Positions 3,217-5,797 of a stretch of 64,000 nucleotides of DNA are shown piece by piece. Within the stretch, counting starts at the first letter, position 1; each line of letters starts with the position of its first letter. The notes under the pieces are model-generated. The model saw only the letters and a program-made list of their open reading frames with translations, searched no databases and was not told the DNA's origin. The stretch spans positions 1,116,001 to 1,180,000 of the forward strand of contig NZ_LT629757.1 in assembly GCF_900104965.1 (NCBI RefSeq), read 5' to 3'. The stretch comes from Nocardioides scoriae (lineage in GTDB: Bacteria; Actinomycetota; Actinomycetes; Propionibacteriales; Nocardioidaceae). The translations under genes and the position numbers were made by a program.

Positions 3217-3777
3217 ATGACCGAGCCAGACCAGACCCCGCCGTACACCGTCGTCGTGGGGGTGAGCGGGACCTCCAAGTCCCCCACCGCCCTGCAGTGG
3301 GCCCGCGCCCAGGCCGAGTCCCACGGCGGACGGCTCGTGGCCGTGCGGGTCTACCGCGTGCCCAACGTGCCGGCCGGCCCGTCGGGCACGTCCTCCCGGG
3401 TCCCGCCCGACCCCGCCGACCTGCACGCCGAGCAGGTGGTGCAGCTGCAGCGCGACGTGGCCGAGGTGCTGGGCGAGGACCACGGGGTGGAGCTGCGCGT
3501 GGTCCGCGGCAACAAGCGCCGCGGCCTCATCGACGAGGCCCGCGGCGCCGACCTGCTGGTCATCGACGCGCCCCGGACGCCGTCGATGTCACCGCTGCTC
3601 GCCCACCGCATCGTCTACGCCGCCCCCTGCCCCGTCGTGGTGATGCCCCCGTCGATCTCGGGTGCTCCCCCGTCGCCGCTCTCGCGCTCGGCCCAGGCCG
3701 TCGGTCGCGCCGCGCTGCGCTCGGCCGCCACGAGCGGGCGCGCCGGCTTCCGGCCGCCGCCGAGCCCGCTCGACTGA
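3217..3777 (+). CDS. Universal stress protein (UspA) family protein
   Basis: A 186-residue single-domain Usp protein. It begins with the beta strand TVVVGVSGTSKSPTALQWA and has the later GADLLVIDA and CPVVVMP strands of the fold. The nucleotide-binding G-2x-G-9x-G-(S/T) motif is not clearly preserved (the region around APRTPSMSPLLAHRI lacks it), so ATP binding is uncertain. About 35 residues after the fold are rich in Ser, Pro and Ala and look disordered. It follows the MFS gene closely, and such UspA-transporter pairs are common; a link to transport is inference. Confidence 0.85.
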   Translation: MTEPDQTPPYTVVVGVSGTSKSPTALQWARAQAESHGGRLVAVRVYRVPNVPAGPSGTSSRVPPDPADLHAEQVVQLQRDVAEVLGEDHGVELRVVRGNKRRGLIDEARGADLLVIDAPRTPSMSPLLAHRIVYAAPCPVVVMPPSISGAPPSPLSRSAQAVGRAALRSAATSGRAGFRPPPSPLD

Positions 3778-3813: not shown

Positions 3814-5031
3814 GTGCCCTCCCTGCCCCCGCTGCCCCCCGTCGACGACACGGAGGCGGTCGTCGCCTGGGTGGCGACCCACCTGGGCGAGCTCGCCCTG
3901 GAGGGCCCCGACGGGATCCGCCCCGGTGGCCACCGCGGCGGGCAGGCGGCCGCCGACACCGCGCTCGCCACCCTCGACGTCGCGGGCTACGCCCGGTCCC
4001 GCTCGACGGTGCTGCCGGAGGGGCGACGGGGCGCGAGCCGGCTCTCGCCGTACGTCCGCCACGGGCTGCTCGGCCTCCCCGAGGTCTGGGACGCGGTGGC
4101 CGACGCCCCGGCCAACGACAAGCGGCGGTTCCGCGACGAGCTGATGTGGCAGGAGTTCGCCCGCCACCTCTACGCCCGCACCGGCGCGGCGACAGCCGAG
4201 CCGCTGCGCTTCGACCCGCCGCACCCCGCGGCCCCGGCGGAGTGGGACGAGCAGATGGCGTGCACCTCCTGGCTGCGCGACGAGCTCGAGGGCGAGGGAT
4301 GGCTGGTCAACCAGACCCGGATGTGGTGGGCCTCCCACTGGACGGTCCGGCACGGCCGCGACTGGCGCGAGGGCGAGGACGACTTCTTCCGCCACCTGCT
4401 CGACGGCTCGCGCGCCGCCAACCGGCTCGGCTGGCAGTGGACGGTCGGCACGGGCACCGGCAAGCCCTACGGCTTCAGCCGCTGGCAGGTCGAGAAGCGG
4501 GCCCCCCAGCTGTGCCGCTCGTGCCCGCTGCGCGAGGCCTGCCCGATCCAGGACTGGCCCGACGCGGAGCGGGGTCCGGCCGTCGCGGGCACGCCGACCG
4601 CCTCGACGACCGGGCCCGGCGCCGGGCCGGACGTGGTGGTGCGCGAGGGCGAGCCGGCCGCGGTCTGGCTGACCGCCGAGTCGCTGGGAGACGGCGACCC
4701 CGCCCTGGCCGCGCACCCCGACCTGCCCGTCGTCTTCGTGTACGACGAGCCGCTGCTCCGCGCGCTGCGGCTGTCCGGCAAGCGGCTGGTCTTCCTGGCC
4801 GAGTGCCTCGCCGACCTGGCCGAGCGGCGCGAGGTCGACGTGCGTCTCGGGCGGGTGCCCGACGAGCTGGGCGAGACCCCCGTGGCCGCGACGTACGCCC
4901 CGGTGCCGGGGTTCGCCCGCCGCTCCGCCGCCGTCACGCTGGCCGAGCTCCACCCCTGGCCGTGGCTCGCCCGCCCGGCCCAGCAGCGACTGACCTCCTT
5001 CAGCGCCTGGCGCAAGGGCGTCCGCCGCTGA
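3814..5031 (+). CDS. Cryptochrome/photolyase family protein with apparently permuted domain order and four Fe-S-type cysteines
   Basis: A 405-residue protein. The first 250 residues are the helical FAD-binding domain of photolyases: SRLSPYVRHGLLGLPEVW (75-92), WQEFARHLY, and NRLGWQWTVGTGTGKPY (203-219). Cysteines fall at 150, 234, 237 and 243; the Fe-S bacterial photolyases (PhrB type) have C-X87-C-X2-C-X12-C, and here it is C-X83-C-X2-C-X5-C. Residues 282-405 (AVWLTAESLGDGDPALAA, VVFVYDE, LVFLAECLADL, TSFSAWRKG) resemble the alpha/beta antenna domain that is normally N-terminal. The order thus looks circularly permuted. It lacks any other N-terminal domain: the FAD domain starts at the GTG start. 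Likely DNA repair or light sensing; activity is untested. Confidence 0.85.
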   Translation: MPSLPPLPPVDDTEAVVAWVATHLGELALEGPDGIRPGGHRGGQAAADTALATLDVAGYARSRSTVLPEGRRGASRLSPYVRHGLLGLPEVWDAVADAPANDKRRFRDELMWQEFARHLYARTGAATAEPLRFDPPHPAAPAEWDEQMACTSWLRDELEGEGWLVNQTRMWWASHWTVRHGRDWREGEDDFFRHLLDGSRAANRLGWQWTVGTGTGKPYGFSRWQVEKRAPQLCRSCPLREACPIQDWPDAERGPAVAGTPTASTTGPGAGPDVVVREGEPAAVWLTAESLGDGDPALAAHPDLPVVFVYDEPLLRALRLSGKRLVFLAECLADLAERREVDVRLGRVPDELGETPVAATYAPVPGFARRSAAVTLAELHPWPWLARPAQQRLTSFSAWRKGVRR

Positions 5032-5037
5032 GCCCCT

Positions 5038-5089
5038 CGGGTCGTGGGTGCCACCGGGCGCCCGAGCGCCCGCTGGGCCTCACGACCCG
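5038..5089 (+). terminator. Nested hairpin downstream of the photolyase gene
   Basis: Outer arms CGGGTCGTG (5038-5046) and CACGACCCG (5081-5089) enclose an inner GGGCGC-CCGA-GCGCCC hairpin (5056-5071). It begins 7 bp after the photolyase stop. No T-run follows, which is common for actinobacterial terminators. Confidence 0.5.
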
Positions 5090-5197
5090 GGAACCGCTAC
5101 GGCACCCTCGCCGCGCCGGTCGAGGACTCCCGGCTTGTCCCGGACGCCGCCGCGGGGGACGGTGGTCACCCGCCCCCTGCCCGCACCGGAGGACCAC

Positions 5198-5797
5198 GTG
5201 CTCGTACGAGACGCCATGACGCCCGACCCGGTGTCCGTCACCCCGACGACCTCGGCCAGGGACGCCACGGCCGCGCTCTCGCGGCACCGGATCTCGGCCC
5301 TCCCCGTCGTCGACGGGGGAACCGTGGTGGGCGTGGTGAGCGAGGCGGACCTGCTGCGCGACGCCTTCCCGCCCGACCGCCGGGCCCACCTGCGTCCTCC
5401 CCCGGAGCGCTCGGGGCCCACCGGGACCACCGTCGGCGAGGTGATGACGTCACCGGCGGTCACGGCGCACGCCGCCACCGATGTCGCGGACGTCGTGCGC
5501 ACCATGGCGACGGGAGGCTTCAAGAGCCTCCCGGTCGTCGACGACCACGGCGCGCTCGTGGGCGTCGTCAGCCGCAGCGACCTGGTGCGCTTCCGCGACC
5601 GGGGCGACGAGGAGGTCCGCGACGAGGTCGTGTCACTGCTGCGAGACCTGCTCCACCCCGAGTGGCGGGCGGAGGTCGCCGACGGCGTCGTCACCGTCGT
5701 GGGTCCCACGACCCCCGACGACGTCGCCCTCGCCGAGGCCAGCGTGGCGAGCGTCCCGGGGGTCGTGCGGGTCACCACGCGCCCCTCGACGCGCTGA
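5198..5797 (+). CDS. Twin CBS-domain protein with C-terminal BON domain
   Basis: A 199-residue cytoplasmic protein. Two CBS repeats are visible (VRDAMTPDPVSVTP...VVGVVSEADLL, then VGEVMTSPAVTAHA...LVGVVSRSDLV); such pairs bind adenine nucleotides. The last 60 residues (DEVVSLLRDLL...VADGVVTVVGPT...GVVRVTTR) match a BON domain. Upstream in-frame codons extend to 5048, but the GTG at 5198 follows GGAGG (5188-5192) at 5 bases and begins directly at the first CBS motif, so it is the preferred start. Its end overlaps the convergent gene on the other strand by 26 bp. Function is regulatory in general; the target is unknown. Confidence 0.87.
   Translation: MLVRDAMTPDPVSVTPTTSARDATAALSRHRISALPVVDGGTVVGVVSEADLLRDAFPPDRRAHLRPPPERSGPTGTTVGEVMTSPAVTAHAATDVADVVRTMATGGFKSLPVVDDHGALVGVVSRSDLVRFRDRGDEEVRDEVVSLLRDLLHPEWRAEVADGVVTVVGPTTPDDVALAEASVASVPGVVRVTTRPSTR

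What the first reader, a model, noticed from the sequence alone, without database searches (positions are those of the whole stretch)
3814..5031. Photolyase-like protein with domains in swapped order and a four-cysteine Fe-S pattern
The helical FAD domain is N-terminal and the alpha/beta antenna domain appears C-terminal, the reverse of all classical photolyases. Cys150, 234, 237 and 243 follow C-X83-C-X2-C-X5-C, close to the Fe-S bacterial photolyases (C-X87-C-X2-C-X12-C). No second photolyase domain lies upstream. A permuted Fe-S cryptochrome or photolyase would be a new architecture or an under-described one.
Basis: partly seen in the sequence, partly recalled or inferred. Interest (0 to 1): 0.75.

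Follow-up and report, generated by a model that had tools for sequence, protein, structure and literature searches.

The report
Actinobacterial photolyase with swapped domains
This gene most likely makes a light-driven DNA-repair enzyme whose two halves sit in the opposite order from textbook photolyases; that layout is already in print under other names, but its back half looks like a relocated ordinary light-antenna domain, which bears on the idea that such enzymes are antenna-less ancestors.

Summary
ORF 3814-5031 encodes an N-terminal photolyase FAD domain, four cysteines (C-X83-C-X2-C-X5-C, invariant in 75 of 75 aligned relatives) and a C-terminal alpha/beta domain; AlphaFold mean pLDDT 94.7, pTM 0.93.

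The C-terminal domain is related to the classical antenna domain: profile comparison P 1.2e-5 for the window's own family and 2.7e-9 for Deinococcus relatives (reversed controls 0.24, 0.22), an HMM search of genomes and fold.

The architecture is not new. It is the SPL / NewPHL / Phr6 group, whose inverted order is in print (passages), as are Fe-S cysteines in some members. Best reading: a CPD photolyase with FAD and a 4Fe-4S cluster; cofactors and repair are inferred.

Two points go further. [quoted passage not shown] here that domain is present, at the other end. And genomes with this gene nearly always also hold the Fe-S (6-4) photolyase: 30 of 33; within the window's family 7 of 7 with the gene against 6 of 54 without.

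The parts
3814..5031 (+). Coding sequence of the domain-swapped photolyase-like protein (405 aa plus stop)
   Evidence: full-length orthologues
3925..4563 (+). N-terminal helical FAD/catalytic domain, about residues 38-250
   Evidence: PF03441 match residues 156-217; PDB photolyase alignments; helices in the model
4261..4263 (+). Codon of Cys150, aligned with Fe-S (6-4) photolyase cysteine 1
   Evidence: invariant in 75 of 75; aligned in 20 of 20, and in 19 of 20 with cysteine columns masked
4513..4542 (+). Codons of Cys234, Cys237 and Cys243 (C-X2-C-X5-C), remaining candidate Fe-S ligands
   Evidence: invariant in 75 of 75; Cys234 and Cys237 aligned with FeS-BCP cysteines 2 and 3 in 19 of 20 each, but in 0 of 20 with cysteine columns masked
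4564..4656 (+). Linker between the domains, about residues 251-281, variable in length
   Evidence: alignment A1; lower pLDDT blocks 88 and 84 in the model
4657..5028 (+). C-terminal alpha/beta domain, residues 282-405, related to the classical N-terminal antenna domain

Best explanation
An Actinomycetota member of the SPL/NewPHL/Phr6 group: a CPD photolyase whose FAD-binding catalytic domain is N-terminal and whose antenna-type alpha/beta domain is C-terminal. Proposed working: reduced FAD in the helical domain, excited by blue light, gives an electron to a cyclobutane pyrimidine dimer in its pocket and the dimer splits; the flavin is re-reduced through a tryptophan dyad (W207, W184); four cysteines hold a structural Fe-S cluster as in FeS-BCPs; the C-terminal domain packs on the FAD domain in the role of the usual N-terminal antenna domain and helps close the flavin site. 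Shown here: domain order, relationship of both domains to photolyase domains, conservation of repair and cysteine positions, a confident model. Inferred: FAD and cluster occupancy, CPD repair, preference for single strands, how the C-domain packs, and whether any antenna pigment binds.
For: FAD domain: 1tez E 1.3e-12 and, with the family profile, E 6.1e-22. CPD-pocket, flavin-Asn and electron-path positions conserved (roles recalled). Cysteines invariant in 75 of 75; first one placed on FeS-BCP Cys1 in 19-20 of 20. C-domain: hhalign against 13 classical antennas not chosen for their match to it, P 1.2e-5 (window family), 2.7e-9 (Deinococcus), 5.6e-7 (both together), reversed controls 0.22-0.28; C-domain HMM finds N-terminal antennas of 7 ORFs of classical order, E 2.4e-7 to 1.7e-3; PF00875 on the C-terminus of 2 of 3 Deinococcus relatives; Foldseek: the 12 photolyase/cryptochrome chains among the 50 listed have TMq 0.52-0.61, the other chains at most 0.43. 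Same layout in published relatives (passages). Rhodococcoides genomes hold one orthologue and one other photolyase-like match each (4 of 4).
Against: No bench data for this protein. With cysteine columns masked, Cys2 and Cys3 no longer align with those of FeS-BCP (0 of 20), and the fourth sits in a shorter loop. No C-domain structural match reaches E 0.001. PF00875 is found at E <= 1 in only 3 of 75 Actinomycetota members (best 0.083) and the Deinococcus matches are under Pfam's cut-off. The third tryptophan of the classical triad falls on the unconserved F133.
Confidence: 0.82

Rival explanations
1. Swapped order is the older state: SPL-type proteins lie at the root of the family and the classical order arose from them.
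For: In the FAD-domain tree, rooted on FeS-BCP, the swapped groups branch one after another between FeS-BCP and the classical enzymes rather than as one clade. PMC9649867 reports the fewest changes with SPL as root (passage).
Against: One clade of all swapped groups is not rejected (p-AU 0.226, and 0.351 without two long rows), so the grade is weak. The C-domain is closer to class I antennas (P 1.2e-5) than the FeS-BCP N-domain is to them (P 0.0018). Nothing here roots the tree.
Confidence: 0.3
2. A cryptochrome-like blue-light sensor rather than a repair enzyme.
For: Own genome also holds a classical photolyase and an Fe-S (6-4) photolyase, so repair could be covered without it; 785 genomes searched hold it only patchily (9 of 98 relatives; 26 of 396 in the phylum at E 1e-38 or better).
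Against: Positions of the CPD pocket are invariant or nearly so across 75 members. [quoted passage not shown] No conserved signalling partner beside it.
Confidence: 0.1
3. The C-terminal domain is an unrelated HUP/Rossmann-like domain that merely resembles an antenna domain.
For: It is short (131 residues modelled), Pfam does not recognise it in the window protein, and structural matches have E >= 0.03 in the PDB.
Against: Universal stress proteins, a comparison set of similar fold, give only P 0.16 (window family) and 0.001 (Deinococcus) in the same test, against 1.2e-5 and 2.7e-9 for antennas. The HMM search finds antennas in genomes it was not trained on.
Confidence: 0.05

Closest known systems
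SPL, short photolyase-like proteins (Xu et al. 2021, Mol Biol Evol 38:4505; paper not held, known here from passages in PMC9649867, PMC9178010, PMC9498864; details of the R. fascians member recalled)
   Same: FAD domain of CPD class I/III type, no N-terminal alpha/beta domain, four cysteines in some members, present in Rhodococcus (orthologues at 62-64%); very probably the same family
   Different: Described as lacking the alpha/beta domain; here an antenna-type alpha/beta domain is present at the C-terminus. What the paper itself says of the C-terminus was not seen.
NewPHL (Emmerich et al. 2020, NAR 48:12845; paper not held, known from passages in PMC13274461, PMC9426592, PMC8948257)
   Same: N-terminal FAD domain, C-terminal domain, Trp dyad; CPD repair in single strands reported for members
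   Different: Phr7, which PMC9426592 links to them, lacks the Fe-S cysteines, as do the four alphaproteobacterial relatives aligned here; their short C-domain links only marginally to classical antennas (P 0.0025; 1.7e-4)
Phr6 and Phr4+Phr5 of Cyanobium and marine Synechococcus (PMC9426592, passages)
   Same: Inverted order with FAD domain first and photolyase domain last; Fe-S cysteines implied
   Different: Cyanobacterial; no sequence was available here for comparison
FeS-BCP, prokaryotic Fe-S (6-4) photolyases (PhrB, CryB; PF04244)
   Same: Cysteine pattern close; Cys1 aligns in 19-20 of 20; FAD domain related (4dja E 3.8e-4)
   Different: Classical order, longer last loop (X12 against X5), separate gene in the same genomes, different branch in the tree
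Class I CPD photolyases (1tez, 1owl, 1dnp, 2j07)
   Same: Best PDB match of the FAD domain and of the antenna domain by profile; catalytic positions
   Different: Domain order reversed; no Fe-S cysteines in the pattern (recalled); full Trp triad (recalled)

Membership tests
SPL / NewPHL / Phr6 (domain-inverted photolyases) | Photolyase FAD domain at the N-terminus with no domain before it | tested here: met
SPL / NewPHL / Phr6 (domain-inverted photolyases) | C-terminal alpha/beta (photolyase or short Z) domain | tested here: met
SPL / NewPHL / Phr6 (domain-inverted photolyases) | Four cysteines (some SPLs, Phr4/Phr6) | tested here: met
   75 of 75
SPL / NewPHL / Phr6 (domain-inverted photolyases) | Falls in one clade with named SPL and NewPHL sequences | tested here: inconclusive
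   Named sequences were not at hand; with Deinococcus and alphaproteobacterial relatives one clade is neither shown nor rejected
SPL / NewPHL / Phr6 (domain-inverted photolyases) | Light-dependent CPD repair in single-stranded DNA | not testable with these tools
   Conserved positions only
FeS-BCP (prokaryotic Fe-S (6-4) photolyase) | N-terminal alpha/beta domain before the FAD domain (PF04244 type) | tested here: not met
   no Pfam match but PF03441 up to E 10; order reversed
FeS-BCP (prokaryotic Fe-S (6-4) photolyase) | C-X87/88-C-X2-C-X12-C | tested here: not met
   C-X83-C-X2-C-X5-C
FeS-BCP (prokaryotic Fe-S (6-4) photolyase) | Bound 4Fe-4S cluster | not testable with these tools
   no spectroscopy
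Class I CPD photolyase | Antenna domain N-terminal, FAD domain C-terminal | tested here: not met
Class I CPD photolyase | Conserved CPD-pocket positions (E. coli E274, W277, N341, M345, N378, W382, W384; roles recalled) | tested here: met
   E109, W112, N166, N203, W207, W209 invariant, M170 at least 90% (alignment, conservation)

The most novel reading that the evidence does not exclude
SPL-type photolyases are not antenna-less ancestors. They are derived enzymes in which a class I-type antenna domain came to lie at the C-terminus, and trees rooted on them are misrooted. In Actinomycetota the enzyme acts as the CPD-repairing partner of the Fe-S (6-4) photolyase, the two being kept or lost together.
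Probability: 0.42. Interest if true: 0.55.

Novelty: new member of a known kind. Interest (0 to 1): 0.4.

Why it matters
[quoted passage not shown] passages; the reasons I saw there are CPD activity, the Fe-S cluster and a fewest-changes tree). If the domain is present but relocated, and closest to class I antennas, SPLs are not the simpler form they seem, and the question becomes testable with a two-domain tree and one structure. The near-constant pairing with the Fe-S (6-4) photolyase suggests a division of labour between two flavoproteins with cysteine clusters.

Tried and rejected
Rejected: a fusion artefact or frameshift (orthologues of about the same length across the phylum). Rejected: an unrelated C-terminal fold. 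Rejected as the general cause of the pairing with FeS-BCP: one operon.

Led nowhere: conserved neighbourhood (largest neighbour cluster 16 of 80 loci, with many shadow ORFs; the window's stress-protein neighbour recurs in 1 of 80 loci). Single origin of the swapped order: neither shown nor rejected. Phages: 0 of 8 matching records cover 80% of the protein. Viral structure library: best E 0.0038 (M127L of Myxoma virus), rows named photolyase at E 0.068 to 0.25. Cysteine distances and superposition on PhrB: no coordinates.

Results against my reading: masking the cysteine columns removes the alignment of Cys2 and Cys3 (0 of 20). The strongest hhalign values (P 4.4e-9 and 2.7e-11) used an antenna set in which 4 of 17 rows had been found by the C-domain HMM itself; without those four they are 1.2e-5 and 2.7e-9, and an earlier set gave 6.4e-5 and 1.3e-6. 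Controls are not all flat: C-domain against its own FAD domain 0.017, Deinococcus C-domain against universal stress proteins 0.001. Alphaproteobacterial C-domains link to antennas only at P 1.7e-4 or 0.0024-0.0025, and not to the window's C-domain (0.073). Foldseek on the C-domain has no match at E 0.001 or less.

Rows dropped: alignment A2 holds the window and 74 of the 80 loci; left out were L102 (cut at a contig end), L112 (shortest) and L045, L047, L056, L061 (relatives of rows kept). Of the 11 weak places, 10 were read; L160, with stops inside, was not. The tree used 12 of the 75 Actinomycetota rows, 8 of the 20 FeS-BCPs, 3 Deinococcus, 5 alphaproteobacterial, 1 DASH and 20 classical rows (9 of the 22 classical loci, 6 of the 8 antenna loci, 5 from plasmids). 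The antenna set holds 17 of those 20 classical rows (L162, L169 and L121 did not pass the start-motif filter).

Full report
What is there. The window is G000:C1:1116001-1180000 of a 4.06 Mb single-contig genome. ORF 3814-5031 (405 aa) starts 36 bases after a universal stress protein gene (3217-3777). Pfam sees only the photolyase FAD domain, residues 156-217. phmmer against the PDB gives class I photolyases (1tez, E 1.3e-12), aligned from residue 70 to 216 of the query and 235 to 398 of the chain: the domain that is C-terminal there is N-terminal here. The genome also holds a classical photolyase (L001) and one PF04244 gene, the family of the Fe-S (6-4) photolyases.

Family. Of 98 related genomes, 9 (own included) hold full-length orthologues at 61-100% identity. 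A scan of the genome collection gave 422 relatives; the best 80 were kept. By their record titles these are Actinomycetota, among them Acidimicrobiales, Solirubrobacteraceae, Patulibacter and Nitriliruptoraceae. In a phylum sample 33 of 396 genomes match a profile of the C-terminal domain alone; 26 of them strongly (E 1e-38 or better), 7 only weakly. More distant relatives lie on plasmids: Deinococcus (33% identity over 83-84% of the query in the two best) and Alphaproteobacteria, mostly annotated 'FAD-binding domain-containing protein'.

Structure. A 75-row alignment gave a model with mean pLDDT 94.7 and pTM 0.93. Helices run over residues 13-235; five strands alternate with helices from 283 to 380; a last helix covers 396-402. 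Against the PDB the whole model matches photolyases and cryptochromes over 210-294 columns with TMq 0.30-0.43 in the 50 rows listed of 218, in keeping with one domain matched at a time; no listed entry covers both domains in this order. The C-terminal 131 residues alone (pLDDT 90.3) match class II photolyase (8oy6, probability 1.00, TMq 0.59) and mouse CRY1 (0.99, 0.55) best. Among the 50 rows listed of 725, the 12 photolyase/cryptochrome chains have TMq 0.52-0.61 and the others at most 0.43, but no match has E at or below 0.001, so fold evidence alone is moderate. Target ranges are not printed; that the match is to their alpha/beta domain is inferred, since the other domain is helical.

Sequence relationship of the C-terminal domain. 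First, hhalign. Against 13 classical antenna domains chosen without regard to this match, the window family's C-domain gives P 1.2e-5 (probability 81%, 60 columns), the Deinococcus C-domain P 2.7e-9 (96%, 124 columns), both together 5.6e-7; the same antennas reversed give 0.22-0.28. The two C-domains match each other at P 1.2e-15. A set of 17 antennas, four of them found through the C-domain HMM, gives 4.4e-9 and 2.7e-11; a first set gave 6.4e-5 and 1.3e-6. Controls for window family and Deinococcus: universal stress proteins of the same genome 0.16 and 0.001, FeS-BCP N-domain 0.1 and 0.011, classical FAD domain 0.56 and 0.5, own FAD domain 0.017 and 0.086. Alignments are shallow (Neff about 2 to 4), so P values are rough. 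Second, the C-domain HMM run over 396 genomes returned 11 weak places besides the 26 strong ones. I read 10: seven are ORFs of classical antenna-FAD order matched at their N-terminal antenna (E 2.4e-7 to 1.7e-3, per genome), one an antenna-like ORF with no FAD domain in the same frame (E 2.8e-5), two unrelated (E 0.008, 0.009). L160 was not read. Third, Pfam PF00875 appears on the C-terminus of 2 of 3 Deinococcus relatives (E 7.2e-4, 1.0e-3; under Pfam's cut-off) and at E <= 1 in 3 of 75 Actinomycetota members. For scale, the same 13 antennas match the FeS-BCP N-domain only at P 0.0018, so the SPL C-domain is closer to class I antennas than that accepted relative is.

Cysteines. Invariant in 75 of 75. 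The family HMM aligned to 20 FeS-BCPs puts Cys150, Cys234 and Cys237 on their cysteines 1, 2 and 3 in 20, 19 and 19 of 20. With the cysteine columns masked the first still aligns in 19 of 20, the other two in 0 of 20: the first is firmly placed, the others are placed by the cysteines themselves. The fourth sits in a shorter loop (X5 against X12). A cluster is likely, not shown.

Function. Positions that in E. coli photolyase carry the CPD pocket, the flavin Asn and the electron path (E274, W277, N341, M345, N378, W382, W359, W384; roles recalled) fall on E109, W112, N166, M170, N203, W207, W184 and W209 in the 1dnp alignment; all are invariant except M170 (at least 90%). The third Trp of the classical triad (W306, recalled) falls on F133, which is not among the conserved columns. 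A mere Trp dyad is what PMC8948257 reports for D. shibae NewPHL (passage). CPD repair is the most likely activity; preference for single strands is carried over from NewPHL (PMC13274461, passage).

Pairing with the Fe-S (6-4) photolyase. PF04244 occurs in 28 of 198 genomes of a phylum sample and in 30 of 33 genomes that hold the swapped enzyme (13 of the 28 are among these 30). Within the window's family it is 7 of 7 with the gene against 6 of 54 without (Fisher p 3.9e-6); with the genomes at least 90% complete, 7 of 7 against 6 of 42 (p 2.0e-5). The seven are not independent (three share a genus) and no species tree was used. Neighbourhood explains little (1 of 80 loci). S. elongatus also holds a CPD photolyase, an FeS-BCP and an SPL (PMC9178010, passage). 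Whether the pairing is in print I do not know: the searches showed no title or abstract start that reports it, and I read passages only.

Evolution. A tree of 49 FAD domains places the swapped groups one after another between FeS-BCP and the classical enzymes, but one clade of all of them is not rejected (p-AU 0.226; 0.351 without two long rows). A single swap is possible and not shown; direction cannot be read without an outgroup. What changes is the picture of SPLs as forms that lack the alpha/beta domain (as told in PMC9649867): in the Actinomycetota and Deinococcus proteins studied here it is present at the other end. For alphaproteobacterial relatives this is inconclusive.

What is known. 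PMC9426592 (passages) describes reverse-order photolyases in Synechococcus and Cyanobium, FAD-binding domain first and DNA photolyase domain last, and notes that Phr7, unlike what it implies for its relatives Phr4 and Phr6, lacks the Fe-S cysteines. PMC13274461 (passage) says that NewPHLs or SPLs show an inverted domain topology. The two primary papers (Emmerich 2020, Xu 2021) are not held; what they say of the C-domain was not seen, and they may already note its kinship. Four Rhodococcus/Rhodococcoides genomes each hold one orthologue of this protein and one other photolyase-like match, so the R. fascians SPL of Xu et al. (recalled) is very probably this orthologue.

Verdict. A correct observation of a real architecture that is already in print: a new member of a known kind. 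The antenna identity of the relocated domain in Actinomycetota and Deinococcus, and the pairing with the Fe-S (6-4) photolyase, are the parts worth following. After checking, the odds of the most novel reading were lowered slightly (0.45 to 0.42), because the unselected antenna set gives weaker P values.

Noticed in passing
G000 and 32 other genomes; family sample: Genomes with the swapped photolyase nearly always also carry the PF04244 Fe-S (6-4) photolyase: 30 of 33, against 28 of 198 in a phylum sample.
   Followed up: partly
G194:C25, G259:C3, L043 1687-3831: In a few genomes the swapped photolyase and the Fe-S (6-4) photolyase genes are neighbours.
   Followed up: no
L114, L115, L116, L120: In 4 of 4 annotated alphaproteobacterial plasmid loci an AarF/ABC1/UbiB-family kinase gene lies beside or within about 2 kb of the NewPHL-like gene.
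   Followed up: no
window 3217-3777: Universal stress protein gene directly upstream on the same strand, 36 bases from the photolyase start; the same neighbour is seen in 1 of 80 loci (L033).
   Followed up: partly
window 5048-5797: Downstream ORF with what look like CBS-type repeats by eye (no family search was answered for it); no similar ORF in the 80 flanking sets.
   Followed up: no
hits H41-H45, H48: Short Listeria and Enterococcus 'phage' records without annotation match photolyases; they may hold host DNA.
   Followed up: no
L160 (G420:C41:35350-35448): Short weak match to the C-domain profile with two stops inside; not read.
   Followed up: no
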